A stretch of 64,000 nt of DNA from Pseudomonadota bacterium (lineage in GTDB: Bacteria > Pseudomonadota > Gammaproteobacteria > Steroidobacterales > GCA-2729495): assembly GCA_963204745.1 (NCBI GenBank), contig CAUJHF010000020.1, positions 124,001 through 188,000 of the forward strand. Direction: 5' to 3'. Under the pieces are notes generated by a model. The model searched no databases. It saw nothing but the letters and a program-made list of their open reading frames with translations, and was not told the origin of the DNA. The position numbers were made by a program, and so were the translations under genes. Each line of letters starts with the position of its first letter. The stretch's first letter is position 1. This document shows positions 16,845-32,135 of this stretch, piece by piece.

Positions 16845-17015
16845 GGCTCTCTCCTGTGCTGTGGGCAGCCCTTTGGGACGCCCGCCGGGAAGATGGTACC
16901 TCCCGCCCACCGGCAGGGACAGTCTGACTGGCGGATACGGCCATCAACCCGGGCAGTAAGCCGGCTACATCCTTTAGAATGGCCTCCCCGAGGGACCGCC
17001 GCAGGAGAGACGTCC

Positions 17016-18419
17016 GTGCTGGATTTCAGAGGACTCATAAGGCTTCTTGAACAACGAGGTGAGCTGTACCGCATCAGCCGGCCGGTCGATCCCGAGTTCG
17101 AGATAGCGGCTGTCATGGAGCAGATCGATCACCAGCGACGCGCATTTCTATTTGAGAACGTCATCGGAGCACGATTCCCGGTCATCGGCGGTCTACTGAA
17201 CCGCATCGAGTGTTTTGGCTGGGCTCTCGGCAGTACACCGGGCGAGCCGTTTGATGCCAACGATCTGGACGCCCGGTTCGAAGCTGCCAAGCAGAATCTC
17301 ATTGCACCCCGTGAAGTGCCCACTGCCCCGGTAAAGGAAGTTGTCCGCCGTGGTGAGCAGATTGATCTCCCGGACCTGCCTGTACCGACATTTTTCGAAC
17401 TCGACAGCGGACCATTCATCACTGCCGCCTGTGGCATCTCGCGTAACCCGGATACCGGGCTGCTGAATGTCGGTGTCTACCGGTCCGTCATTCTCGGACG
17501 GAACACCCTGGCCGTTAATGCCAGTTCCCTGTCCGACCTCCGCAAGTTCTACAAACATGCCGAACAACGTGGCGAGTCGATGCCGCTCGCCCTGGCAATC
17601 GGCGTTGAGCCTGCGCTGCAGATGGCAGCGGCCTGCAAGCTGCCTCCGGACCAGTCCGAACTCGATCTGGCCGGTGGACTGCAGGGCAAGCCCGTCGATC
17701 TGGTCAAGTGTGAAACCAGCGACCTGCTGGTTCCTGCAAACGCGGAGATGATCATCGAACTGAAGGTCAGCTTCACGGACAATATCGACAACAATCTCGG
17801 CGAGTTTGCCGGGCAGTACGGGCTTGAGAGAGCACCCGTTGCGGAAGTCACGGCCATCACCCACCGCAAGGACGCGATGTTCTACTCGATCCTTGCGGGG
17901 AGGAACCCGGAACACAACACCCTGGGGTCCATCGCTACCTTCTCGATCAGGCGTGCGCTGATCGGTGCGCTGCGCAGCCAATTGACGGGGATTATCGATA
18001 TCGATGTGTTCCTCGAACCCCGCATGGGCGCAATGGCGCATATCGTCATGTCGATCCGCAAGCAGAACGATGCGGAACCCATGGCGCTGATCGAGGCAGC
18101 GTTCAAGGCGGCTGGCGGGTTCTTCCCGGTCAGTCGCATCACCAAGCGGATCATTGTGGTCGACGAAGACGTGAATGTGCACGATCTTGGTGATGTGGAA
18201 TGGGCGATGTATACACGCACTGCACGTGCTGACAAATATCGGGTGATCCCCGATGTAAAGAGCTGGGAGCTCGAGCGCTGCGCCAAGGGCGACAGGGGTT
18301 CGCTCCGGCTGGCGATAGATGCAACCAAGGACATCGAGGATCGAGAGGACATGGTGCGTCCGGTCATCCCCGGCGCCCGCAATGTCAAACTCGCGGACTA
18401 CCTGCAGAAGAAGCCATAG
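17016..18419 (+). CDS. UbiD-family decarboxylase
   Basis: LDFRGLIRLLEQRGELYRISRPVDPEFEIAAVMEQ N-terminus; EVTAITHRKDAMFYSILAGRNPEHNTLGSIA; long UbiD-like core. GTG start at 17016 with CAGGAGAG upstream. Confidence 0.88.
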   Translation: MLDFRGLIRLLEQRGELYRISRPVDPEFEIAAVMEQIDHQRRAFLFENVIGARFPVIGGLLNRIECFGWALGSTPGEPFDANDLDARFEAAKQNLIAPREVPTAPVKEVVRRGEQIDLPDLPVPTFFELDSGPFITAACGISRNPDTGLLNVGVYRSVILGRNTLAVNASSLSDLRKFYKHAEQRGESMPLALAIGVEPALQMAAACKLPPDQSELDLAGGLQGKPVDLVKCETSDLLVPANAEMIIELKVSFTDNIDNNLGEFAGQYGLERAPVAEVTAITHRKDAMFYSILAGRNPEHNTLGSIATFSIRRALIGALRSQLTGIIDIDVFLEPRMGAMAHIVMSIRKQNDAEPMALIEAAFKAAGGFFPVSRITKRIIVVDEDVNVHDLGDVEWAMYTRTARADKYRVIPDVKSWELERCAKGDRGSLRLAIDATKDIEDREDMVRPVIPGARNVKLADYLQKKP

Positions 18420-18421
18420 CG

Positions 18422-19465
18422 ATGATAGATCCTTATATCGCTGTCGCCTTGCAGACTACAGTTCGGCACTGCGCAACGCGAAGTGAGACCGAAAAGAACC
18501 TCAGCCATATAGGCAGCATGATTGACCTGGTGTGTCACATCTGTGCACTGGAATTGCCCGTAAGACTGGTCGCCCTCGGTGAGGGCTGTATCCAGGGCTT
18601 CGCCGACGAAATCCTGCATCTCTCTTCGGCTGAATATGCGGCAACGATGGCGGCTGAAATCCCGGGGCCGGAAACCGATCATCTGGCCGCCAAGGCCCGC
18701 CAGCACGGCATTTTCCTGATTGCCCAGCTAAAGGAAAAATTGCCTCAGTATCCGGACCGCTTCTTCAACACGGTCTTCATCATCGATCCTGTCGGCCAGA
18801 TCATCTACAAGCACCGCAAGAACGTGGTTCTTTTTGTGGAGCATTCCACTACCCCGCACGACGTCTACGACCAGTGGCTCAGGGAAAACGGGGATACGCT
18901 TGATGCATTCTTCCCGGTAGCAAAGACAGATATCGGCAATATCGGTGGCAGCGTCGGGGTTGAAGGCGCTTTCCCGGAAAGCTATCGCGGCTTTGCGATG
19001 AATGGTGCAGAAATCATGTATCGCGCGTCACTACCGGAACCCTGGGTATCGCGCGGGATCTGGGATGTGCAGAACCGGGCCCGTGCGGTCGACAACACCG
19101 CGTACGTGCTGGCCCCGAACTGCGGTGCCCTCATCATGCCGGGCAACCCGCCGACAACGATTGGCGGAGCGCTGGGTGGACGGTCGATGATTGTCGGTTA
19201 CAAGGGCGAAGTACTGGCCCAGAGCAGCGTGGTCGATGACTGCTATGTGGCATCCGAGATCAATATCGATGCACTGCGCCATTACCGGGAACATGCCCGG
19301 TTCCAGAACTGGCTTCCCTGCCTGCGCACGGAGATCTACCGCAAGATATATGAACAGCCGGTCTGGCCCAAAAACCTGCCGCCTATGGATGATGCCGCCG
19401 CCGGGAAGGTCCTGGACGCGACCATCAGCCAACTGACCGCCAGGGGCAGTTTCACCAAACGCTGA
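18422..19465 (+). CDS. Nitrilase-fold (carbon-nitrogen hydrolase superfamily) protein lacking the catalytic Cys
   Basis: Clear homology with the ORF at 21820-22956; Glu (ALGEGCIQGF) and Lys (YKHRKN) regions kept; the position aligned with Cys in LICAEGSYPE reads SVGVEGAFPE. Confidence 0.85.
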   Translation: MIDPYIAVALQTTVRHCATRSETEKNLSHIGSMIDLVCHICALELPVRLVALGEGCIQGFADEILHLSSAEYAATMAAEIPGPETDHLAAKARQHGIFLIAQLKEKLPQYPDRFFNTVFIIDPVGQIIYKHRKNVVLFVEHSTTPHDVYDQWLRENGDTLDAFFPVAKTDIGNIGGSVGVEGAFPESYRGFAMNGAEIMYRASLPEPWVSRGIWDVQNRARAVDNTAYVLAPNCGALIMPGNPPTTIGGALGGRSMIVGYKGEVLAQSSVVDDCYVASEINIDALRHYREHARFQNWLPCLRTEIYRKIYEQPVWPKNLPPMDDAAAGKVLDATISQLTARGSFTKR

Positions 19466-19547: not shown

Positions 19548-21677
19548 TCAGCGAACTTCCTTCTCCATGAGTTTGTCCACCAGTCCGGGTGCAACCTCTG
19601 CATAGCGCGCAAATTCCATCGTGAAGGTACCTCGGCCGCTGGTCGCTGAACGCAACCAGTTGATGTAGCCAAACATTTCCGAGAGCGGAATAAAGCCCTG
19701 CACGAAGGCCTGCGGACCCTTCTGTCCCTGCTCGCTGATCTGACCACGCCGCCGGTTGAAGTCACCGATGATTTCACCCAGGTAGTCCGACTCGGTTACC
19801 GTTTCGACAGCCATGATCGGCTCAAGAAGCTTCGGCCGACTCGCCTTGTGCGCCTCACGGAAGCAGGCACGGCCTGCGATCTCGAAGGCCAGCGCAGAGC
19901 TGTCCACATCATGGTACTTGCCATCGATCAGACGAGCCTTGAAGTCTACAACCTCATAGCCGGCGATCTGGCCGCGCTTTGATTCGGTACGAATCGCATG
20001 CTCAACAGCCGGAATATATTCGCGCGGTACCCGGCCACCGACGATTTCGTCAGAAAACTCGATGCCGGTCCCGGCCGGCAGCGGCTCAAAGATCATCTTG
20101 ATCTCGGCATACTGGCCTGAACCACCGGACTGCTTCTTGTGCGTATAGATATGTTCGATGGTCGAGCCGAAAGCTTCACGGAAGCTGACCCGCGGCTTGC
20201 CCATGTTCGCTTCCACGCCCAGTTCGGTACGCATGCGGTCGATTGTCACTTCAAGGTGCAACTCACCCATGCCCTTCAGTACGGTCTGGCCCGTCTCCTT
20301 GTCTACCTCAAGCTGCAGGGATGGATCAGCCTTGGCCATCTTGTAAAGGGCTGCAGACATCTTGTCGATGTCGGTGCGCGTCTTGGGTTCAACCGATACG
20401 CTGATTACCGGATCCGGGAAGCGCATGCGCTCCAGCAAGGCGGGATGTGCCGGATCGCTCAGGGAGTCACCGGTCTCGGTATCCTTCATGGATACAAACG
20501 CACAGATATCGCCGGCGCGTACTTCTTCGATATCCTTGGTCGAGTCTGCCTGTACCTCAACGATCCGCCCTATGCGCTCTTTCTTGCCACGCGTGACATT
20601 CATGAGGGTGTCACCTTTCTTGATAACACCGGAATAGACACGGGCAAAGGTCAGCGTGCCGAACTGGTCATTGATGACCTTGAAGGCCAGTGCACGAGCC
20701 GGGGCATCGTCGCGGACTTCCTGCGTACCGATGACATTACCGTCCGGATCCACCAGCGAAGTACCACCGTTCTCACCCGGGTATGGCAAGTAAGCAACCA
20801 CGGCATCAAGCAGCTGCTGGACTCCCTTGTTCTTGAATGAGGAACCGCAGAAGACCGGCACCAGCTGGCCAGTCACCGTACCTTTGCGGATACATGCCTT
20901 CAGCACGACCGGATCAAATTCACCCGTTTCGACAAAGGTCATGAAGGCATCATCGTCAAGTGCCAGCGCTGTCTCCAGAGCATCCTGACGCAGCTTGGGA
21001 AGCTGATCAATCCAGTCATTGTCGCGACTGGTCGCAAAATTGAATCGGCTCCTGACCTGGTCGAGCGGCACGGTTTCCCACGGGCTGTCCTTGCCTTCCG
21101 CTGTCCAGATATAGGCGACGTTCTCGATGAGATCGCACATACCGACAAACTCATCGTGGCTGCCAACCGGCACTTGGCACAGCAATACGTTGGCGCCAAG
21201 CCGCTCGCGAATACCCTTTACGCAATGGCCGAAATTGGCACCCATGCGATCCATCTTGTTGACGTAACACATGCGGGGAACGTTGTACTGGTTAGCCAGG
21301 CGCCAGTTGGTTTCCGTCTGTGGTTCGACACCGGCTACGCCATCAAAAACCACGACGGCGCCATCGAGGACCCGCAGACTCCGGTTAACCTCGATCGTGA
21401 AATCCACATGTCCCGGCGTGTCGATGACGTTGATCTGATGGCCTTTCCACTCAGTGGATACCGCGGCGCTCTGGATCGTGATGCCACGTTTCCGCTCCTG
21501 CTCCATGTAGTCGGTCGTGGTGCTGCCCTTGCCATCCTTGGTGTCATGCACCTCGACGATCTGGTGTTTCTTGCCCGTGTAGTACAACACGCGCTCGGTA
21601 GTGGTCGTTTTACCTGCATCGATGTGCGCCACGATACCGATGTTGCGGTAGAGCTTGATGTCTTTCTTCCTGGCCAT
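19548..21677 (-). CDS. Elongation factor G-type GTPase (probable second EF-G)
   Basis: GIVAHIDAGKTTTTERVLYYTG, DTPGHVDFTIEVNRSLRVLDGAVVVFDGVAGVEPQTE, NKMDRMGANF; EF-G domains II-V. ATG at 21677 preferred over ORF start 21752. No rpsL/rpsG/tuf neighbours. Confidence 0.93.
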   Translation of the reverse strand: MARKKDIKLYRNIGIVAHIDAGKTTTTERVLYYTGKKHQIVEVHDTKDGKGSTTTDYMEQERKRGITIQSAAVSTEWKGHQINVIDTPGHVDFTIEVNRSLRVLDGAVVVFDGVAGVEPQTETNWRLANQYNVPRMCYVNKMDRMGANFGHCVKGIRERLGANVLLCQVPVGSHDEFVGMCDLIENVAYIWTAEGKDSPWETVPLDQVRSRFNFATSRDNDWIDQLPKLRQDALETALALDDDAFMTFVETGEFDPVVLKACIRKGTVTGQLVPVFCGSSFKNKGVQQLLDAVVAYLPYPGENGGTSLVDPDGNVIGTQEVRDDAPARALAFKVINDQFGTLTFARVYSGVIKKGDTLMNVTRGKKERIGRIVEVQADSTKDIEEVRAGDICAFVSMKDTETGDSLSDPAHPALLERMRFPDPVISVSVEPKTRTDIDKMSAALYKMAKADPSLQLEVDKETGQTVLKGMGELHLEVTIDRMRTELGVEANMGKPRVSFREAFGSTIEHIYTHKKQSGGSGQYAEIKMIFEPLPAGTGIEFSDEIVGGRVPREYIPAVEHAIRTESKRGQIAGYEVVDFKARLIDGKYHDVDSSALAFEIAGRACFREAHKASRPKLLEPIMAVETVTESDYLGEIIGDFNRRRGQISEQGQKGPQAFVQGFIPLSEMFGYINWLRSATSGRGTFTMEFARYAEVAPGLVDKLMEKEVR

Positions 21678-21819
21678 AATTCCGACTTCGTGTTGTGTAC
21701 TGTGGAGGGCAGGCAGCGCCATGGCGCCACCCGGGTCACGATAACCTCGCATTGTAGCCTGTCAGCCGCACTGGCTGCCAACCCCGGATTGGCCAACCAT
21801 GGGGCCCGCCCCTTGCCCC

Positions 21820-22956
21820 TTACAGGGCACCAGCGCGCCGGATCCGCTCTGCGACCTCGGCCTTTACCACATAGGGCGTCCAGTCGGCCGGCGGGGTAAA
21901 TACCCCCCAGTCGACCATCTTGTTGATCTGGTGCTTCACCATCTCGAGCTGGTCAGCCTCCACCAGGGGCGGTTCTTCCATGCACAGGTTTCTCGGGTAG
22001 ATGCCACCCTGCGCCATTGCAGCGTCGTATATGGTCTTGTATTCCTCGACACGCATGTCCTTGATGAGGTTTTGCCACTGGGCGCGCACGCGGAAGTCGC
22101 GCAGCCCGTCTATGTCCAGCAGGGCACTGACCAGGGTCTCTCCCCCGCCGAGATACTGGGACACAACATTGCCGCGATAGTCGATGATCTGGCTCTTGCC
22201 ACAACTCATCTGGTGGCCGCCGCCCGGAAAGTCGATCGCACCGATATTGGGCGACAGCACATAGCAGTTATTGAAAACAGCATGGGCCCGGTTCTGGATC
22301 TCGGCGATACCATTGCCCATCCACGGTTCCGGATACTGGGTGCGCCAGATTATCTCCGCACCGTTCAAAGCCAGGCCGCGGGCAGCTTCCGGATAACTGC
22401 CCTCAGCGCAGATCAGGGTACCGATATTGCCGATCTCGGTCCTGGCAACCGGAAATACTGCCTTGAACAGGCTGAGCGGGTCGTCGCCATATTTCTTCAG
22501 ATAGATATTCCAGATATCGCTCGGCGCAACATTGGGCTCACGCTGGTAAAAGGCCGTCTTGTAATGTTTGTGAATGACTTTGCCCTGCGGATCGATAACG
22601 AAGGCGATGTTGAAAATCCGGTCTTCCATCAATTCGGGGTCTTTTGCCACCATCTGCGCGATGATGTAGATCCCAAGCTCCTTCGCCAGTTCGCCCAGCG
22701 CCTCGGTCTCACGGCCCGGAATTTCCGGCACCACCTCACGGCAGATTCGCAGGTGCTCATCCCCACCACCGAGGCACCAGCCGCCGATTCCGCCTTCGGA
22801 GACGGCCACAAGCTTCACGGGGAGGTCCAGACTGCAATTCCAGACCGCGTAGCGCATGCTGAGCGCCAGCCTGTCGATGTCTTTCATGTAATCGTCCCGG
22901 GAAAGAGCCATCCGGGACACGTTCTGGATACCAACTGCGGTGTAGTGGAGACGCAT
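21820..22956 (-). CDS. Nitrilase/carbon-nitrogen hydrolase family protein
   Basis: Glu (AVSEGGIGGW), Lys (HKHYKT) and Cys (TLICAEGSYPEAARG) motif regions all present. Confidence 0.88.
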   Translation of the reverse strand: MRLHYTAVGIQNVSRMALSRDDYMKDIDRLALSMRYAVWNCSLDLPVKLVAVSEGGIGGWCLGGGDEHLRICREVVPEIPGRETEALGELAKELGIYIIAQMVAKDPELMEDRIFNIAFVIDPQGKVIHKHYKTAFYQREPNVAPSDIWNIYLKKYGDDPLSLFKAVFPVARTEIGNIGTLICAEGSYPEAARGLALNGAEIIWRTQYPEPWMGNGIAEIQNRAHAVFNNCYVLSPNIGAIDFPGGGHQMSCGKSQIIDYRGNVVSQYLGGGETLVSALLDIDGLRDFRVRAQWQNLIKDMRVEEYKTIYDAAMAQGGIYPRNLCMEEPPLVEADQLEMVKHQINKMVDWGVFTPPADWTPYVVKAEVAERIRRAGAL

Positions 22957-23124: not shown

Positions 23125-24546
23125 ATGTGGATTCGCAAAAGTGACCGCGACCGCCAAACAGGCAACATGACACCGGTTCCGACCCAGATCGTGGGTAATG
23201 AAGAATTCGAGCCCATGCCGCAGACGCCTGATCAGCGGCAGGTAGAGCAGCGGATATTCGAACTCGCTGATCACTACAGCCGGAAACTCGGCATGTCGCG
23301 CCGCGCATTCCTGCGCACCAGTGGCGGTATGGCGGTGTCTTTCATGGCCATGAATGAAGTCTTCGGTCCGGCATTCATGGTCAGTGAGGCCGAAGCAGCT
23401 GAACCTGCCGCGAGCCGCGAGATGTGGCCAAAGAAGGAGTTCATTCTTGACCTGCAGACACACCATGTGAAAGACAGCATGGTCGGCCCTGCCGTTTTTC
23501 GTTCGCTGACCGGCAGGTTCGGACTAAACCCGGCGCTGAGCGGCGCGGCGCCCACAAAAGACAGCCTTCACCGGGCCAACTATGTGAAGGAGATCTTCTT
23601 TGACAGCGACACGGTGATGTCCTGTCTGACAGGTGCGGCGTTCGGACCACCGGACAAGTACGTACTGTCCGCGGACGACATCGTGGAAACACGCAATCTG
23701 GTTAACGAGGCGGCAGGCTCACGGCGCATGCTGGCACATGGTATCGGTACACCGGCAAATCCGGACTGGCTCGAGGAGGCTGAACGGCAAGTTCGCGACC
23801 TCAGAATTGACGCGTGGAAGTTCTATACCGGCGACCCCATACAGCCATGGCGGCACGATGACGAGAAGCTGGCGTATCCGTTCTATGAAAAGACGCTGAA
23901 GCTTGGCGTAAGGAATATCTGCACGCATAAGGGCCTGCCACTGCCAGGACCCGGCGCCGATTATTTTCGGCCGGATGACGTCCTCAAAGCAGCGAAGGAC
24001 TGGCCGGATCTCAACTTCATCGTCTTTCACTCCGGAATGAAGCACATGATGACGATGCTCCTGCCTGGTGAAAGCGGTATCGACGAAAGCGGGAATATCC
24101 CCTGGACGACCGACTTCTGCGCGCAGATCAAGGCAAACGGTCTGAAGAACATCTATCTCGAACTGGGTGCTGTATTCGGCCACTCCGTTGTTACCCATCC
24201 CGAAGTCTGCGGACATCTGCTCGGCCAGCTCATAGACGCTGTCGGCGCTGATCACGTGATCTGGGGCACGGACAGCATCTGGTGGGGATCTCCACAGTGG
24301 CAGATCGAAGCATTCCGGCGCTTCGACATCCCGGAAGACTTGCAGGCGAAGTTCGGATACAAACCCATCTCCGCGCGCGACCGTGAGCTGATCTTCGGTC
24401 TGAATTCCGCCCGCCTGTTTGGCCTGGATCTGCAGGAAGCCCGCAAGGCGATCCCGGTTGATGCACTGACCAGGATGAAGGTCGCCTATCAGGCCGCAGG
24501 CGCGGAACCGAGCATGACACAGTACGGATGGATTGCTGCAGTCTGA
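23125..24546 (+). CDS. Amidohydrolase_2-type (TIM-barrel) protein with internal twin-arginine-like export motif
   Basis: SRRAFLRTSGGMAVSFMAMNEVFGPAFMVSEAEAAEP at residues about 58-92; ILDLQTHHVKDSM; NFIVFHSGMKH; VIWGTDSIWWGSPQWQIEAFRRF. Confidence 0.8.
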   Translation: MWIRKSDRDRQTGNMTPVPTQIVGNEEFEPMPQTPDQRQVEQRIFELADHYSRKLGMSRRAFLRTSGGMAVSFMAMNEVFGPAFMVSEAEAAEPAASREMWPKKEFILDLQTHHVKDSMVGPAVFRSLTGRFGLNPALSGAAPTKDSLHRANYVKEIFFDSDTVMSCLTGAAFGPPDKYVLSADDIVETRNLVNEAAGSRRMLAHGIGTPANPDWLEEAERQVRDLRIDAWKFYTGDPIQPWRHDDEKLAYPFYEKTLKLGVRNICTHKGLPLPGPGADYFRPDDVLKAAKDWPDLNFIVFHSGMKHMMTMLLPGESGIDESGNIPWTTDFCAQIKANGLKNIYLELGAVFGHSVVTHPEVCGHLLGQLIDAVGADHVIWGTDSIWWGSPQWQIEAFRRFDIPEDLQAKFGYKPISARDRELIFGLNSARLFGLDLQEARKAIPVDALTRMKVAYQAAGAEPSMTQYGWIAAV

Positions 24547-24549
24547 ATC

Positions 24550-24945
24550 ATGCTCCGGTTAATCGCCATTCCAATCGTTGCGCTGTCGGTTGCCGGTATC
24601 GCCCAAGCGGGCGAGAGAGCAGAAGCGGCTGAATCCTGCGCACCTTCCGGCGAGCTGCGGGGCGATGAAAAACGGGGGGCAGCGCTGCATCTTCAGCACT
24701 GCGCCGTATGTCATGGCGTTGACGGCAAAGCCGAGGTGATCGTCATGCATATGGACGAGCCACCGAAAGACCAGAGCGATCCGGCTTATATGAAAACCCT
24801 GCCGGACGAGTATCTCTACCTGGTGATCTGCAAGGGGGGTGCCGCAGTTGGCAAGAACTTCATCATGCCGAAGTTCGGTGACGTGATTTCTGATCAGGAC
24901 ATCCGTGACATCATTGTCTGGATACGGACCTTCTCCGGAACCTGA
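24550..24945 (+). CDS. Periplasmic c-type cytochrome (monoheme)
   Basis: Signal peptide; LHLQHCAVCHGVDGKA heme-binding CXXCH; distal-Met candidate NFIMPKFGD. Confidence 0.85.
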   Translation: MLRLIAIPIVALSVAGIAQAGERAEAAESCAPSGELRGDEKRGAALHLQHCAVCHGVDGKAEVIVMHMDEPPKDQSDPAYMKTLPDEYLYLVICKGGAAVGKNFIMPKFGDVISDQDIRDIIVWIRTFSGT

Positions 24946-24949
24946 AGCT

Positions 24950-26224
24950 GTGCACTCGCCGCCTGTGACTGCTGCCGCAAAGCCGGGCCTCCGGGAGTCT
25001 CTGCAACAGGTTTCCGGACACAGCTGGCGGGTATTTCTGATCTGCCTGATTGGCGTGACCTTCGCCAATCTGGACCACTCCCTGTTCACCTTTGTCCTTA
25101 CCGAACTTTCTGCGGAATTTGGCTGGTCGGAGCTGGAGCGCGGGATCTACATCGCAATCACCTTTGTCGCAGCCGGCGTGCTGATCACCCAGATCGGTGC
25201 ACTGGCGGATCGTATCGGTCGGCGTGCGGTGTTGCTGGCCAGCACCCTGCTGACCCCGGTGTTTGTAGCCGCCCTGGCGTTTGCCCCGACGACGGTCAGC
25301 CTGCTGATCGCACGCACGCTCGGATTTACCACGTCCGGCGTACAGTCGCCGGTAACCGGCACGCTGGTGTTCGAGGAGTCCCCGCCCCGCCTGCGCGGAC
25401 TATTCACCGGTGTACTTCAGATCGGCTTTCCCCTGGGCTTCTTCCTCGCTTCGTTGCTAGTTCCTTTTATTTATGAAACATGGGGTTGGAGGTATATCTT
25501 CCTGTTGAGTCTCCTGTTCCTGCCCTACGCGTGGGTGATCTACCGTCACCTCAAGGACTCGCAACTCTGGCTGGACAGCCGCGCAGCACGCAGCAGGGCA
25601 AGTCGTCCGGCACCGGCAACCCGTGAACTGTTTCAGCCTGCCTATCGACGGCGGACCGTGCTGCTGTTCCTCGGCACTTTTCTCTACGTTTTTGCCTACG
25701 GCGCGACAATCATGCTGACGCCCTACTTTCGTGAAGCTCGCGGCTGGGAGGCGCGCGAGGCGATCGAGCTGGTCGGACTCTCTTTCCTGATTGGTACGTT
25801 TGGCTATGTGCTCGCAGCGTACTTCGGCGAGTTCCTGATCAGCCGCCGGAATACCATCGTCGTCTGGTGCTGGCTCGGCGGGCTGGCCTTCAGCGTCATG
25901 ATCTGGTTTACCCAACGCTGGTGGCCGACTTTCCTGGCGTTCAGTGCGATGACGTTTTTCTTCTACGGCGCCTATGCCGTGATGTTCACATTCATTGCGG
26001 AAAACTATCCTGCCGGGCTGCGCGCGACTGCAGCCAGCTTCGCCAGTTCACTTGCGGTGGAGCTCGGACTCGGCCTCGGGCCGTTTGCCCTCTCATGGGC
26101 GATAGGTGTGGTTGGCTGGGCAGCCGCATTCACGTGGTGTGCCGTGCTGCCGGTGATACTCGCTGGCGCCACGTTTCTCGCCCTGCCCGCTGATGTACCA
26201 GCCGAGCCAGTCATACCAGACTGA
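24950..26224 (+). CDS. MFS transporter
   Basis: Multi-TM; ALADRIGRRAVLLAST between TM2 and TM3 fits the MFS signature. GTG at 24950 is an alternative to ORF start 24905, which overlaps the cytochrome gene. Confidence 0.85.
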   Translation: MHSPPVTAAAKPGLRESLQQVSGHSWRVFLICLIGVTFANLDHSLFTFVLTELSAEFGWSELERGIYIAITFVAAGVLITQIGALADRIGRRAVLLASTLLTPVFVAALAFAPTTVSLLIARTLGFTTSGVQSPVTGTLVFEESPPRLRGLFTGVLQIGFPLGFFLASLLVPFIYETWGWRYIFLLSLLFLPYAWVIYRHLKDSQLWLDSRAARSRASRPAPATRELFQPAYRRRTVLLFLGTFLYVFAYGATIMLTPYFREARGWEAREAIELVGLSFLIGTFGYVLAAYFGEFLISRRNTIVVWCWLGGLAFSVMIWFTQRWWPTFLAFSAMTFFFYGAYAVMFTFIAENYPAGLRATAASFASSLAVELGLGLGPFALSWAIGVVGWAAAFTWCAVLPVILAGATFLALPADVPAEPVIPD

Positions 26225-26229
26225 TGCTT

Positions 26230-29040
26230 TCAGCTGGCGGTCGAAACCGCTGCTTCCACATGCCGTTCAAAGTCACAAGTGAAGTCGTGAAAGGTTGAAT
26301 TCGGTTCAAAGTTCAGTGCCCGGTAAGTGATATGTCCGTAGCCACTGACCAGTGCCGTCGGCTTTATCAGTGCGGAACTGCTCACGACTGCGCCGAAATT
26401 CTGCCGACCATTGCGGAACATCATCGGGTCCCAGCCGTGATACATGAAGATGCTCCCGGGCTGCATGCTTGGCGTCACATGTGCCATGGCGATAAATGAG
26501 CCCAGCGAGTTGAAGACCCGGATCAGCTCGCCATCGCTGACCTTGCGCGACTGCGCATCGTCCGGGCTCACGTAAACATCCGGTTCGCCGCGACGCAGGC
26601 TTAGCAGCAGGGAATCATCGGTCCACATGCTGTGTATGCCGTGTCGCAAGTGACCCATCAGCATCTGCAGCGGATAGCCATCCAGCCGCATTGGATCCTT
26701 GTGCCGCGGCAACTGCTCGTCCTCGGCGATAAACCAGTCATGGTCGATGTAGAACTGCTGCCGGCCAGTCAGCGTCGGGTATGGTTCGCGCTTTTCAACC
26801 GCACGCAACAGTACAGAACCATAGGGTGCATTTTCATCGTAAACGACGCGTGCCGTACCCTCATTGCGCATCAGGCCATGGCTGCGCATTTCATCGAAGG
26901 TCACCTTGGGCACCCCGGGATCCTTGTCGATGAGGAACTGAATCAGGTCACGTGTATCGCTGATCTGGCCATTGAGGGTGAACAGCGCGTGATACCGGGT
27001 GAAATCCCGCGCTATGGGCTGCCCGAAAAAACTGTCCTGGATCGGCGTAATGCCGCGCACCACCGCCCGCTCCGAGATGGCCTTGCTCAACCGGTTGAGT
27101 GCATGCCAGTCGTCCATCGATTCGCCCAGGGGCGCCACTGCCGCATCCATCACCTGCACGTATGGCGTGCGGGCCTCCAGCAGGTAATCCTGCCGTTCGT
27201 AGTGATGAGCGATCGGCAGCACGTAGTCTGAGTACATGGCGGTGATACCCATGTCGGGCGTCAGCGTCACGATGGTTTCCAGGCTCTCGAATGCGGTCTT
27301 GCGCCAGCGGCCAGCGCCGGAGCGCCAACTCGCCGTATTGCTGCCGGCAAAGATACCCATCTTCCACGGCGTAGCCGCATAGTCCGGCCAGGCGCCGGAG
27401 CGTATGGATTCCTGGAAATAGTGGTCGACCTTGTCGGCCACGGCCTTGCCGTAGATCCGCTCGTTGAGATCCCTGCCGTCTGCATGGACATAGTCCCAGC
27501 GGGCCAGTGTTGCGATGTTCAGGGTAGGCGGCAGGCCTGCGAGCATAAATGCGATCTGGCTCGCGGTGCTGCCGAGATTTTCCAGCTGAAAGCCACCGCC
27601 GGCCTTGCCTAGGTTGCCCGTCAGCGACAGCAACAGCATGAACGCCCGCTGCAGGAGATCACCCTGCAGCCATTTGCACATGCGGTAGCCGGTAAAGATC
27701 ATCGCCGGCCGGGTCTTCCCAAAGATCCGCGCGACCTCACGGATATTGTCGGCATGCACACCGCAGATCTTTGCGGCCTGCTCGGGCGTATAGCCGGAGG
27801 CGCGCTGCTTCACCAGTTCAAAGACAGTGGTAACGCGAACGGCGCCCTGCCGGGTTTTTACCGTCCAGCTGCCTTCCAGAGCGGGTTCAAGATCGCCAAG
27901 CGCAAGACTGCCTGCCGGGATGACCGGTACGGGTGAACCGGGCGGTGGCGGCGGATTGCCGGTCGCCGGTGCAGCGACAGCCTTCCCGGTCCGTTCGTCC
28001 CAGACATAAAACAGATTGTCGCGAGCAGTTACTCCATCGATGAAATCGCTCTCACGGAGAAAACGCCCGTTATCGCTGCGCACGAGAAACGGCAGATCTG
28101 TCTGCTCACGGATATAGCTGTGATCGATCAGGTCTTCGGCGAGCAGAACCTGGACCATGGCCATGGCCAGCGCGATGTCCGTTCCCGGCCTCGGATTGAG
28201 CCACTTGTTCGCATGCATCGCACTCGGCGTAAATTCAGGCGAAATCGCGATTACTTCCGTGCCGTTATACCTCGCCTCCCAGAAGAAGTGCGCGTCGGGA
28301 ATACGGGTCACCGCCGGATTGCAGAACCAGACCAGACAGCATCTGGATTTGAAGACGGCCGCCATCGTATCGCCCAGCAGCGGTTCTCCGACCGTCATCT
28401 GCACACCGGTCGGCAGGTCGCCTACCCCGGCAAAAGCTTCGGGCAACTCGATGCCGCTGATGGTCGCAAAACGGCCCAGCGCTGCGAATGAAGCCCGTTT
28501 GAGCACCATCTGCGTACCCAGATCGAAACTGATGGAGCGCGGCCCTGAGGCTATCGAGTGATCGATAAAGCGATCGGCAATATCGCTCATCGCCTGGTCC
28601 CAGCTGACCCGTTGCCACTTGCCCTCGCCACGCTCGCCGACCCGCTTCATCGGATACAGCACCCGCTGCTTGCCGTACATGTATTTGGCGTGGCGCAGAC
28701 CCTTTTGACAGCCTCTGGGCCCGTAGTCCGGGGCATCCTCCGACCGGCCGTATTCGCCCTGCTGCTCTTCGCGCCAGACGATGCCGTTCTTCACGTAGAT
28801 ATTGAATGCACAGGTGCCAGTGCAGTTCGTCCCGTGTGTGCCGTGGGTTACGCGGTCCCAGCTCCACTTCGTGCGCTGCAAGTCTTCCCATGCACCATAT
28901 GGCAGCGTCGCCTGCCCCTGTGCGGCAGCGGGCGCATAACGCAGGCTGAGTGCGAGGCCTAGCGCTCCCGATCCGGCCAGGAATCCCCGCCGTGTCGTCA
29001 TTGCTGATGTGTGCTGTGTAACAGTCATTGCAGGCTCCAC
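26230..29040 (-). CDS. Molybdopterin-dependent oxidoreductase, type II DMSO reductase family catalytic subunit-like
   Basis: Tat-type signal TTRRGFLAGSGALGLALSL; HGTNCTGTCAFNIYVKNGIVWREEQQGEY...PDYGPRGCQKG, a HxxxCxxxC...C FS0-type site as in NarG/ethylbenzene-dehydrogenase-like alpha subunits. Confidence 0.85.
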   Translation of the reverse strand: MEPAMTVTQHTSAMTTRRGFLAGSGALGLALSLRYAPAAAQGQATLPYGAWEDLQRTKWSWDRVTHGTHGTNCTGTCAFNIYVKNGIVWREEQQGEYGRSEDAPDYGPRGCQKGLRHAKYMYGKQRVLYPMKRVGERGEGKWQRVSWDQAMSDIADRFIDHSIASGPRSISFDLGTQMVLKRASFAALGRFATISGIELPEAFAGVGDLPTGVQMTVGEPLLGDTMAAVFKSRCCLVWFCNPAVTRIPDAHFFWEARYNGTEVIAISPEFTPSAMHANKWLNPRPGTDIALAMAMVQVLLAEDLIDHSYIREQTDLPFLVRSDNGRFLRESDFIDGVTARDNLFYVWDERTGKAVAAPATGNPPPPPGSPVPVIPAGSLALGDLEPALEGSWTVKTRQGAVRVTTVFELVKQRASGYTPEQAAKICGVHADNIREVARIFGKTRPAMIFTGYRMCKWLQGDLLQRAFMLLLSLTGNLGKAGGGFQLENLGSTASQIAFMLAGLPPTLNIATLARWDYVHADGRDLNERIYGKAVADKVDHYFQESIRSGAWPDYAATPWKMGIFAGSNTASWRSGAGRWRKTAFESLETIVTLTPDMGITAMYSDYVLPIAHHYERQDYLLEARTPYVQVMDAAVAPLGESMDDWHALNRLSKAISERAVVRGITPIQDSFFGQPIARDFTRYHALFTLNGQISDTRDLIQFLIDKDPGVPKVTFDEMRSHGLMRNEGTARVVYDENAPYGSVLLRAVEKREPYPTLTGRQQFYIDHDWFIAEDEQLPRHKDPMRLDGYPLQMLMGHLRHGIHSMWTDDSLLLSLRRGEPDVYVSPDDAQSRKVSDGELIRVFNSLGSFIAMAHVTPSMQPGSIFMYHGWDPMMFRNGRQNFGAVVSSSALIKPTALVSGYGHITYRALNFEPNSTFHDFTCDFERHVEAAVSTAS

Positions 29041-29053
29041 CTGTGTCCCGGGC

Positions 29054-29719
29054 TCAGCGCCCGTGCTCGCCGGGCATCACGAGGCGCATACCGCCGGCGC
29101 GGGCCAGTGCAATCTCCACCAGTGGCATGCGATCGTTACCGAAATAGAGATCGGTACCCACCAGCATGGTGGGCGTACCAAAGCCGCCATGCTGAAGCAG
29201 GCGCGCTGCGTTCTCGCGAAGCTCGCCCAGTGTGTCCGGTGCGCCAAGCGCGGCGGCGAACCTCTCAGCATCCAGACCGGCACTTTCTGCCACCGCAGTG
29301 ACTTCGCCCGGCTGGCTGATATCACGCTGATCTGCAAACCGGGCCCGATATATGCCATCCAGATAGGCAACCACGCACCCTGCTCTCAGCGCCACAATCG
29401 CTCCCCGCTGCGCCCAGCCGGTTTCCACACACCCGGCATCCGGCTCATGCAGAGCGACACCACAAAATCGCGCCCAGTCCTGCAAATCCTTGCTCCGATA
29501 GCGCTGCCTCGCTGCAGACAGATCATCCTGCGCCTGGCCCGGATGCGTCGCGCCGCGACTGCTGATCTCCGCGAGCCGCACCGGCCGGTAGACGATTCGC
29601 GCTCCGGTGCGGATCGCCGCTTCCTGCAACCGTCCGAAAGCCAGATAACTCCAGGGGCAACTACAGTCGAAAAAGAATTCCACTGTGGCCTGGGCGGAAT
29701 TACCGGCAGACACTGGCAT
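29054..29719 (-). CDS. DsbA-fold 2-hydroxychromene-2-carboxylate isomerase family protein
   Basis: VEFFFDCSCPWSYLAFGRLQEAA N-terminus; C-terminal FGTPTMLVGTDLYFGNDRM. Confidence 0.85.
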   Translation of the reverse strand: MPVSAGNSAQATVEFFFDCSCPWSYLAFGRLQEAAIRTGARIVYRPVRLAEISSRGATHPGQAQDDLSAARQRYRSKDLQDWARFCGVALHEPDAGCVETGWAQRGAIVALRAGCVVAYLDGIYRARFADQRDISQPGEVTAVAESAGLDAERFAAALGAPDTLGELRENAARLLQHGGFGTPTMLVGTDLYFGNDRMPLVEIALARAGGMRLVMPGEHGR

Positions 29720-31255
29720 TCAGCCCCGGGCGCGCAACGCAGTCTTCAGGACCTTGCCGCTTGCGTTACGTGGAATCTGCTCGATAAATTCAACATACTT
29801 TGGCTGTTTCATGCGGGATATCTTTCCTTCCAGAAACGCAGTCAGAGCGGCCTCATCGAGTCCGGAGCCGGAACGCCTGACCACAAAGGCCTTCAGGACT
29901 TCACCCCAGCGTTCATCCGGAACACCAATCAGTGCGACATCAGAAACCTCCGGATTCCGGAAGATAACCTCCTCTACTTCGCGCGGATAGATGTTGATAC
30001 CGCCTGAGATCACCATGTCCTTGATCCGGTCAACGATATACAGATGGCCTTCGGCATCGCGCCGCGCGAGATCGCCGACTGTTACCCAGCCATCACGATA
30101 TGTCCCGGCTGTTTCCTCCGGACGACCCCAATAGCCATTGAAAAGGTAGGGACTGCGGGAGTGGAGCTCGCCGACCTCATCAGCTGCGCAGACGCTGCCA
30201 TCCGGTCGCCGGATTTCAATCAGCGTGCATGGAAATGGCTGACCGACACACTGCTGTTTTCGCAACTGATCCGCTGGCCTCAGGTTGGAAACAATACCGG
30301 CCTCAGTCGATCCGTAGGTGTCGTGCAGCAGACCCGGACCGAGCTGCGCGACCAGTTGTTCTTTCATGGCCTGCGGCATTGCCGCTGCATTGGAAATGAC
30401 CGCACGCAAGCTGCCCTTGCTGCTCGCCGTCTGCAACCCGGAGCCGGCTTCCAGCAGTGCATGGAAATGCGTCGGCACCCCAAAGAATCCAGTGATTGAT
30501 TCTCCGGCCAGACAGTTCAGAACCTCCTCCGGTTCAAACTTGTCCATGATCTCGGCATAGCCACCGAAGAATATCGGTGCCAGGGAAAACACCATGCCAG
30601 CGCCGTGGCACATGGGCGCAATTGCCAGAAAGCGGTCATCCGGCCCGTAACAGCCATACTCGACCGCCATGGCAAACAGGGTAAGTATCCGTGAGCGGTG
30701 CGGTACAAGCACCCCCTTGGGTTTGCCGGTAGTGCCTGATGTATAGGGAATTGTAAAAACATCCCATTCACTGACTGTCGGCAGGCCGGTCGCCGGACCT
30801 GCTTTGGCAAGCCATGCCTCGAAAGCCGGACCGATCTCGATGATGACGGGCGCGGACGCCAGTTTCGCGTCGCGCAGCAAGGCAACCACTTCGCGATCAG
30901 CAAACACAACCGCGGCCCCGGCATCCTCACAGATACTGACCATTTCGCCGACAGACAGGCGCGGATTGACCGTCGCCAGTGCAATACCCGCCTGCGAAGC
31001 ACCGATGACGATCTCCATGTATTCGATGGAGTTCCTGGCGATGATCGCACCGTGCATGCCGGGCTGCAGTCCGAGGCCACTACCCAGCGCAGCGCTGACC
31101 TTGTCAATGCGCGACATGAGCTCTGCATAACTTCGCGTGCGATCGCGATGCCGATAGGCAATCTTGCCCGGGCTGCGATGCATCGCCGCACGCACACCCG
31201 CTGCCAGCGACAGATGCTGAAAGGAAAACGGCAGGCTGGCGCTCGGTGAAGACAT
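29720..31255 (-). CDS. AMP-dependent acyl-CoA synthetase/ligase
   Basis: IPYTSGTTGKPKGVLVPHRS; LLHDTYGSTEAG; YRDGWVTVGDLARRD; PRNASGKVLKTALR. Start at MSSPSASL preferred. Confidence 0.93.
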   Translation of the reverse strand: MSSPSASLPFSFQHLSLAAGVRAAMHRSPGKIAYRHRDRTRSYAELMSRIDKVSAALGSGLGLQPGMHGAIIARNSIEYMEIVIGASQAGIALATVNPRLSVGEMVSICEDAGAAVVFADREVVALLRDAKLASAPVIIEIGPAFEAWLAKAGPATGLPTVSEWDVFTIPYTSGTTGKPKGVLVPHRSRILTLFAMAVEYGCYGPDDRFLAIAPMCHGAGMVFSLAPIFFGGYAEIMDKFEPEEVLNCLAGESITGFFGVPTHFHALLEAGSGLQTASSKGSLRAVISNAAAMPQAMKEQLVAQLGPGLLHDTYGSTEAGIVSNLRPADQLRKQQCVGQPFPCTLIEIRRPDGSVCAADEVGELHSRSPYLFNGYWGRPEETAGTYRDGWVTVGDLARRDAEGHLYIVDRIKDMVISGGINIYPREVEEVIFRNPEVSDVALIGVPDERWGEVLKAFVVRRSGSGLDEAALTAFLEGKISRMKQPKYVEFIEQIPRNASGKVLKTALRARG

Positions 31256-31262
31256 TGTCAGA

Positions 31263-32135
31263 TCAGACCGGACCACCGGGCAACCTGAATACACGCAATG
31301 CATTGTCACGCATCAACAAGCGTCTGGATTCCTCAAGCAAGTTCAGTTCATCGACCTCGCGTACCGCACGCTCCGGGTCAATCACCGGCCAGTCTGTGCC
31401 AAACATGACCTTGTGGCGTCCGTAGGTATTCGCGTAATGCACGAAAGCGGGCGGCCAGTACTTCGGCGCATAGGCATCGCCAGCGGTATAGACGTTCTCA
31501 TGCTTCCAGCACATGGAAATCATCTCATCGGTCCAAGGAATGCCGATATGAATTCCGATCAGGCGCAGTTCCGGAAAATCGATGGCGACCTGATCCAGAC
31601 AGATGGGCCTGCCAACTGAAGGCAGACGGCGTTCGCGTGAATAGACGAGATTATGGCCGACCTGCATCATGATCGGGATGTCGAGTTCACAGCACTTCGC
31701 GTAGTACGGATAGTACTTCGCATGATCAGGCGCCAGTCCACACCAATGCGGATATAGATGTGCACCGACAAAGCCGTATTCGCGCACGCCCTGCTCAAGA
31801 TCCCTGAGCCCTTGCATGCCGCGAAAGGGATCGATACCCGCAAGTCCGGAGAAGCGCTGGGGATACTCCTGGCAGACCTCATGGACCCGTTCATAGGGCA
31901 GTTCAAACCCACCCTTCACATTGATGTCGCCCGCCCGCACTGCGATCAGCAGCGAGCGCTCGATACCAGCCCGGTCCATGCGCTGCAGGTAATTCCCGAT
32001 GCTGACCCCGCCGCGAATTTCCTCGGGCATACGCACCTGGGCCTTGAATGCATCATCAAGACCGGTATGCCCGTCCGCAACCTCACGCGGCGTAAAGAGA
32101 TTGCAGACGATATCTATTGCACCCGGCACTGGCAT
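31263..32135 (-). CDS. Amidohydrolase_2 (ACMSD-like) superfamily protein with altered N-terminal metal motif
   Basis: PGAIDIVCNLFTP; GFVGAHLYPHWCGLAP; PIMMQVGH; LIGIHIGIPWTDEM; VMFGTDWPVIDPERAVREVDEL. Confidence 0.82.
   Translation of the reverse strand: MPVPGAIDIVCNLFTPREVADGHTGLDDAFKAQVRMPEEIRGGVSIGNYLQRMDRAGIERSLLIAVRAGDINVKGGFELPYERVHEVCQEYPQRFSGLAGIDPFRGMQGLRDLEQGVREYGFVGAHLYPHWCGLAPDHAKYYPYYAKCCELDIPIMMQVGHNLVYSRERRLPSVGRPICLDQVAIDFPELRLIGIHIGIPWTDEMISMCWKHENVYTAGDAYAPKYWPPAFVHYANTYGRHKVMFGTDWPVIDPERAVREVDELNLLEESRRLLMRDNALRVFRLPGGPV

What the first reader, a model, noticed from the sequence alone, without database searches (positions are those of the whole stretch)
17016..19465. UbiD-type decarboxylase coupled to a nitrilase-fold protein that has lost its catalytic cysteine
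The two ORFs are separated by 2 nt and are probably translationally coupled. Against the paralog at 21820-22956, the catalytic segment TLICAEGSYPE reads GSVGVEGAFPE. The Cys codon is replaced by Gly (GGG, 18956-18958), at least two substitutions from TGC/TGT, so one sequencing error cannot explain it. The Glu (ALGEGC) and Lys (YKHRK) regions, frame and length are intact, which suggests selection on a pseudoenzyme or a changed chemistry. The UbiD partner also looks divergent: NNLGEFAG where many UbiDs have EGPFGEF/Y. Inference: the Cys-less protein could be a substrate-binding or structural partner of the decarboxylase, or a regulatory subunit for the active nitrilase.
Basis: partly seen in the sequence, partly recalled or inferred. 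Interest (0 to 1): 0.68.

Follow-up and report, generated by a model that had tools for sequence, protein, structure and literature searches.

The report
Conserved cysteine-less amidase-fold partner of UbiD
A protein that looks like an amidase but has lost its essential cysteine has been kept for a long time in dozens of aquatic bacteria, always directly behind a decarboxylase gene and in a gene cluster that, in related genera, also carries relatives of the plant enzyme that breaks down chlorophyll, so it probably does a real but unknown job there.

Summary
ORF 18422-19465 is a nitrilase-superfamily protein (Pfam CN_hydrolase 9e-30; AF2 pLDDT 94.6; nearest folds formamidase and aliphatic amidase). 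The catalytic Cys column is Gly179, at the strand-helix elbow, while Glu54, Lys133 and Glu140 are intact. All 39 homologs of its clade with a readable column have Gly, using all four Gly codons. dN/dS is about 0.03-0.07. The clade is monophyletic (100/100) and its closest outgroups have Cys. All 40 orthologous loci sit directly 3' of a UbiD gene (-8 to +53 nt); none of the assessable Cys-type homologs does. The UbiD's unusual first-Glu motif is a subfamily trait, not specific to the pair. The nearby Cys paralog is distant and missing in some genomes that keep the pair. The partner-of-UbiD idea is therefore favoured over a regulator of the active nitrilase, but physical contact is untested. Unexpectedly, related clusters carry red-chlorophyll-catabolite-reductase and bilin-reductase homologs without heme oxygenase, which suggests linear-tetrapyrrole catabolism. 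At least three other conserved Cys-less nitrilase-fold lineages were seen. No characterised Cys-less nitrilase was found in the literature held.

The parts
17016..18419 (+). UbiD-family decarboxylase (467 aa, GTG start); the upstream ATG at 16893 is not supported by homologs
   Evidence: Pfam UbiD 6.9e-56, UbiD_N and UbiD_C; TIGR00148 above cut-off; homologs start at the same point
17481..17483 (+). UbiD Arg156, the conserved Arg of the E-R-E triad
17787..17804 (+). UbiD DNNLGE: Asp258 in place of the first Glu, Glu263 = invariant second Glu
18422..19465 (+). Cys-less nitrilase/amidase-fold protein (347 aa)
   Evidence: Pfam CN_hydrolase 9e-30; AF2 pLDDT 94.6; Foldseek to AmiF/AmiE E about 1e-23
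18581..18583 (+). Glu54, catalytic Glu, kept
   Evidence: invariant in 50 of 50 sequences
18818..18820 (+). Lys133, catalytic Lys, kept
   Evidence: invariant in 50 of 50
18839..18841 (+). Glu140, matching the second active-site Glu of amidases (Glu142 in the Geobacillus amidase), kept
   Evidence: invariant in 50 of 50; equivalence to Glu142 inferred from family knowledge
18956..18958 (+). Gly179 (GGG) in the catalytic-Cys column
   Evidence: Gly in 39 of 39 clade members with a readable column
21820..22956 (-). Cys-containing amidase-fold paralog (Cys183 codon 22408-22410), conserved neighbour
23125..24546 (+). Amidohydrolase_2 protein with a Tat-like signal, conserved neighbour
   Evidence: Pfam PF04909 3.7e-19; conserved in cluster
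24550..24945 (+). small cytochrome c, conserved neighbour
24905..26224 (+). MFS transporter, conserved neighbour
26230..29040 (-). type II DMSO-reductase-like molybdoenzyme alpha subunit with a Tat-like signal
   Evidence: TIGR03479 E 1e-259, below its curated cut-off
29054..29719 (-). DsbA-fold (HCCA-isomerase-like) protein
   Evidence: ORF; cluster homolog matches Pfam DSBA
29720..31309 (-). AMP-forming acyl-CoA ligase
   Evidence: conserved
31263..32135 (-). second Amidohydrolase_2 protein
   Evidence: Pfam 2.6e-40; PDB neighbours include carboxyvanillate decarboxylase and oxalomesaconate hydratase

Best explanation
The two genes are a conserved functional pair in a catabolic cluster. The downstream protein is an amidase-fold pseudoenzyme. 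It has given up acyl-enzyme (Cys) chemistry but keeps the Glu-Lys-Glu pocket, and it acts as a ligand-binding accessory subunit of the UbiD decarboxylase. It would hold an amide- or carboxylate-bearing heteroaromatic substrate, or stabilise the UbiD active-site loops, as the unrelated small subunit VdcD does for VdcC. Shown: loss of Cys, retention of the other catalytic residues, selection, universal operonic linkage. Inferred: the shared reaction step, the complex, and the ligand.
For: 40 of 40 loci have the gene directly 3' of UbiD on the same strand, gap -8 to +53 nt, median 17.5. Across 37 family genomes, 28 have both, 1 has UbiD only, none has the Cys-less gene only (a few of the 28 are read from contig-edge fragments). 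The Gly clade is monophyletic, 100/100, with Cys-type sister groups. dN/dS is about 0.03-0.07 by NG86, with synonymous sites near saturation; all four Gly codons are used. Glu54, Lys133 and Glu140 are invariant, and elbow or pocket positions are remodelled and then fixed (176 G, 179 G, 180 V, 204 L, 211 R). A precedent exists for an accessory subunit of UbiD acting on its E-R-E loops (PMC8379154). UbiX, needed for the UbiD cofactor, is found in nearly all family genomes searched, though not in this incomplete MAG.
Against: No interaction data. Gene adjacency also fits two consecutive but separate enzymes. One genome (G036) has the UbiD without the Cys-less gene. The partner UbiD motif also occurs in UbiDs that lack the neighbour. 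Strict retention of Glu-Lys-Glu is more than a pure scaffold would need. The partner has no resemblance to VdcD.
Confidence: 0.42

Rival explanations
1. It is still an enzyme, with nucleophile-free chemistry: Glu-Lys-Glu and a bound water (or plain acid-base catalysis) act on the substrate or product of UbiD as a separate consecutive step.
For: Glu54, Lys133 and Glu140 are invariant in every Gly-type protein. The elbow is remodelled consistently (G176, G179, V180) and pocket-side positions are re-fixed. The neighbourhood is rich in hydrolases.
Against: I know of no catalytically active Cys-less nitrilase-superfamily enzyme, and the library searches found none. The same three residues are also invariant in the Cys-type proteins, so they may be kept for folding or binding.
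Confidence: 0.3
2. It is a dead partner subunit (prozyme type) of the Cys-containing amidase at 21820-22956.
For: The Cys amidase is present in 24 of the 28 family genomes with the pair. Activation of an enzyme by a dead paralog is known, e.g. trypanosomatid deoxyhypusine synthase (PMC3663545).
Against: The active paralog is on the opposite strand, is not the sister group, shares about 40% identity, and is missing (E<=1e-100) in G011, G018, G030 and G031, which keep the pair; some of these are incomplete MAGs.
Confidence: 0.15
3. It is a decaying gene or a sequencing or annotation artefact.
For: A single-residue loss in one MAG could be an error.
Against: Gly in 39 of 39 species, frames intact, dN/dS about 0.03-0.07.
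Confidence: 0.01

Closest known systems
Formamidase AmiF / aliphatic amidase AmiE (nitrilase superfamily)
   Same: Fold over the whole length; Glu, Lys and second Glu of the active site; top Foldseek hits
   Different: Catalytic Cys is Gly; about 20% identity; scores far below the curated AmiF/AmiE cut-offs (45.7 against 406 bits)
NCBI 'nitrilase-related carbon-nitrogen hydrolase' proteins (Haladaptatus, Tsukamurella) and the Variovorax homologs
   Same: Nearest relatives outside the clade, 44-50% identical and full length
   Different: Where the column was read (Variovorax and others) they have Cys in an ICMEG-type motif and no UbiD directly upstream
VdcCD hydroxyarylic acid decarboxylase (UbiD VdcC plus small subunit VdcD)
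   Same: A UbiD enzyme with a co-encoded accessory protein; VdcC is among the closest NCBIfam models of the window UbiD
   Different: VdcD is a 4-Cys zinc ribbon, not an amidase fold
PDB 6h6v/6h6x UbiD-type decarboxylase (HmfF, name from memory)
   Same: Closest solved UbiD by sequence, E 1e-65
   Different: Canonical VEGPFGE motif there; [ED]NxLGE and variants here

Membership tests
Nitrilase superfamily (CN_hydrolase fold) | alpha-beta-beta-alpha nitrilase fold / PF00795 | tested here: met
   Pfam 9e-30, AF2 pLDDT 94.6, Foldseek
Nitrilase superfamily (CN_hydrolase fold) | catalytic Cys nucleophile | tested here: not met
   Gly179 in the window and in 39 of 39 clade members
Nitrilase superfamily (CN_hydrolase fold) | catalytic Glu and Lys | tested here: met
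   Glu54, Lys133, Glu140 invariant
Nitrilase superfamily (CN_hydrolase fold) | amide or nitrile hydrolysis | not testable with these tools
   needs purified protein
AmiF formamidase / AmiE amidase equivalogs | score above the curated cut-off | tested here: not met
   45.7 against 406 and 43.1 against 427 bits
UbiD decarboxylase | UbiD N, central and C domains | tested here: met
   PF20695, PF01977, PF20696
UbiD decarboxylase | E(D)-R-E catalytic triad | tested here: inconclusive
   Arg156 and Glu263 conserved; first position is Asp in the window and E/V/N/Q/S/W in orthologs
UbiD decarboxylase | UbiX (prFMN synthase) available in the cell | tested here: inconclusive
   Not found in this MAG, 88% complete; present in 6 of 7 congeners searched
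VdcCD-type two-subunit UbiD | zinc-ribbon VdcD subunit | tested here: not met
   the partner is a 347-aa amidase fold
Pseudoenzyme | catalytic motif lost, protein conserved | tested here: met
Pseudoenzyme | no catalytic activity | not testable with these tools
   assay needed

The most novel reading that the evidence does not exclude
The UbiD / Cys-less amidase pair is part of a bacterial pathway that breaks down exogenous linear tetrapyrroles (chlorophyll catabolites or bilins). RCCR/FDBR-type reductases, imide- and amide-ring hydrolases and the UbiD decarboxylase would take the pyrrole units apart, with the Cys-less protein handling a lactam- or imide-derived carboxylate for UbiD.
Probability: 0.2. 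Interest if true: 0.85.

Novelty: new variant of a known kind. Interest (0 to 1): 0.62.

Why it matters
The nitrilase superfamily is defined by its Cys nucleophile. A long-conserved clade that replaced it with Gly while keeping every other catalytic residue, always tied to a prFMN decarboxylase, would be a new type of UbiD partner or a new chemistry on an old fold. The cluster context gives a concrete hypothesis for how heterotrophic aquatic bacteria may degrade tetrapyrroles. I know of no described bacterial gene cluster for that, and one literature search found none.

Tried and rejected
Sequencing error or gene decay: rejected. Another Cys taking over: rejected. Recent duplicate of the Cys paralog in the window: rejected, it is distant in the tree. 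UbiD motif divergence as a mark of the pairing: rejected, it also occurs in unpaired UbiDs. Window Rieske oxygenase as a pheophorbide-a-oxygenase homolog: not supported, it matches VanA_C, phthalate-dioxygenase and demethylase families and no PaO domain. Literature searches for Cys-less nitrilases or UbiD-nitrilase clusters gave nothing relevant. Direct sequence profile link between the two reductase-like families: not found; only the fold comparison links the RCCR-like one.

Full report
Observation. The window lies in contig 20 of a 2.69 Mb MAG, 88% complete, whose nearest named relatives are gammaproteobacterial MAGs. The ORF at 17016-18419 is a UbiD-family decarboxylase; 2 nt after its stop begins a 347-aa protein of the nitrilase superfamily at 18422-19465. 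Aligned to the Cys paralog at 21820-22956 and to solved N-carbamoyl amino acid hydrolases, its Cys column is Gly179, codon GGG at 18956-18958. The AF2 model has mean pLDDT 94.6 and puts residue 179 at the strand-helix junction where the nucleophile sits in this fold. The closest solved folds are formamidase AmiF and aliphatic amidase AmiE. Glu54, Lys133 and Glu140, the other catalytic positions, are intact.

Not a chance loss. A whole-collection scan with an alignment of orthologs and searches in 60 related genomes found the same protein in dozens of species, mostly gammaproteobacterial MAGs and single cells from water and sediment. Every clade member whose column can be read has Gly (39 of 39; codons GGC 17, GGT 16, GGA 4, GGG 2). 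NG86 dN/dS against the nearest species is about 0.03-0.07, with synonymous sites near saturation. In the tree the Gly proteins form one group with 100/100 support, and the nearest groups have Cys. The Cys paralog in the window is not the sister group. A separate clade in Binatota, Dormibacterota and Solirubrobacterales has Ala in the column.

Linkage. In 40 of 40 Gly-type loci the gene follows a UbiD gene on the same strand, gap -8 to +53 nt, median 17.5. None of the assessable Cys-type or Ala-type homologs from the same scan has a UbiD in that place. One (L099) has a convergent UbiD next door but too little upstream sequence to judge. Two other Cys-type paralog loci in related genomes have UbiD genes within about 3 kb, in other arrangements (L167, L169), so a looser UbiD-amidase association is not limited to the Gly clade. 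Among 37 family genomes, 28 have both genes, one (G036) has UbiD only in an unrelated context, and none has the Cys-less gene alone. Fisher values ignore relatedness and are not used as evidence here. The Cys amidase is also a frequent neighbour (24 of 28) but is missing in four genomes that keep the pair.

The UbiD. The conserved Arg and second Glu of the E-R-E triad are kept. The first position is Asp in the window and Glu, Val, Asn, Gln, Ser or Trp in orthologs. The N-x-[LM]-G-E motif also occurs in UbiD paralogs without the partner, so it marks the subfamily, not the pairing. UbiX was not found in this incomplete MAG, but congeners and nearly all other family genomes searched have it.

Mechanism. 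Strict retention of Glu-Lys-Glu, together with clade-specific fixed changes around the elbow and pocket (176 G, 179 G, 180 V, 204 L, 211 R), says that the pocket still matters, while covalent amide hydrolysis through Cys is excluded by sequence. I judge an accessory or substrate-holding subunit of UbiD most likely (0.42), then an enzyme with nucleophile-free chemistry acting next to UbiD (0.30), then a dead partner of the Cys amidase (0.15). The precedent for an accessory protein stabilising UbiD active-site loops is VdcD (PMC8379154), but VdcD is an unrelated zinc ribbon. Contact, ligand and activity are all inferred.

Pathway context. The conserved cluster holds the Cys amidase, Amidohydrolase_2 proteins, a cytochrome c, an MFS transporter, a type II DMSO-reductase-like molybdoenzyme, a DsbA-fold protein and an acyl-CoA ligase; in related genera also an isochorismatase-fold and a polysaccharide-deacetylase-fold hydrolase. 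The last fold includes the ring-amide hydrolase PuuE (PMC9863593). Related clusters also carry two reductase-like proteins. One is a clear ferredoxin-dependent bilin reductase homolog (Pfam 1.7e-17; profile hit to a bilin reductase structure, 5.6e-15). The other gives sub-threshold hits to red chlorophyll catabolite reductase in 4 of 5 members, and its AF2 model (pLDDT 73) has that enzyme and bilin reductases as its top 28 Foldseek hits. The window's own genome has two bilin-reductase-family genes elsewhere, one in a row with an esterase and a Rieske oxygenase. No heme oxygenase was found in this genome or, above cut-off, in the family genomes searched, so these reductases are unlikely to make bilins from the cell's own heme by the known route. 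Catabolism of exogenous linear tetrapyrroles is a concrete but unproven reading (0.2). Not every genome with the pair has a bilin-reductase gene (21 of 28).

Verdict. The protein belongs to an apparently undescribed, conserved, Cys-less amidase-fold clade that is always found paired with UbiD; its function is inferred only.

Noticed in passing
L043:3755-4465; L044:2578-3294; L142:9185-9835 (own genome C7:76184-76834): Ferredoxin-dependent bilin reductase family genes, in some genera directly beside the molybdoenzyme gene of the UbiD cluster, in genomes without a recognised heme oxygenase.
   Followed up: partly
L076:3086-3856 and orthologs in L089, L093, L068, L090: Small protein upstream of the UbiD pair with red-chlorophyll-catabolite-reductase fold by Foldseek and weak Pfam RCC_reductase hits.
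   Followed up: yes
own genome C57:18652-19752 (L056:8653-9756): Second conserved Cys-less nitrilase-fold family: Ser in the Cys column (TIASEEILYPE) and Arg for Lys, beside a molybdoenzyme and a 4Fe-4S protein; hits in 41 of 60 relatives; Ser fixed in the 20 read.
   Followed up: partly
own genome C47:20713-21768 (L121:6714-7772) and C17:42686-43699 (L120:6537-7703, Tat-like signal): Third conserved Cys-less nitrilase-fold family: nucleophile elbow shortened by two residues (IAMSAVQ--FEPE), Glu and Lys kept; hits in 38 of 60 relatives; motif nearly unchanged in the 20 read.
   Followed up: partly
L103-L107: Binatota, Dormibacterota and Solirubrobacterales homologs with Ala in the Cys column (GIMMANE), a separate clade in the tree.
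   Followed up: partly
window 19548-21752: A full-length elongation factor G gene lies between the UbiD pair and the Cys amidase in this genus but not in most other genera.
   Followed up: no
L143:9046-9954 (own genome C41): Bilin-reductase-like domain followed by a weak, sub-threshold match to the protochlorophyllide-reductase PCP_red domain.
   Followed up: no
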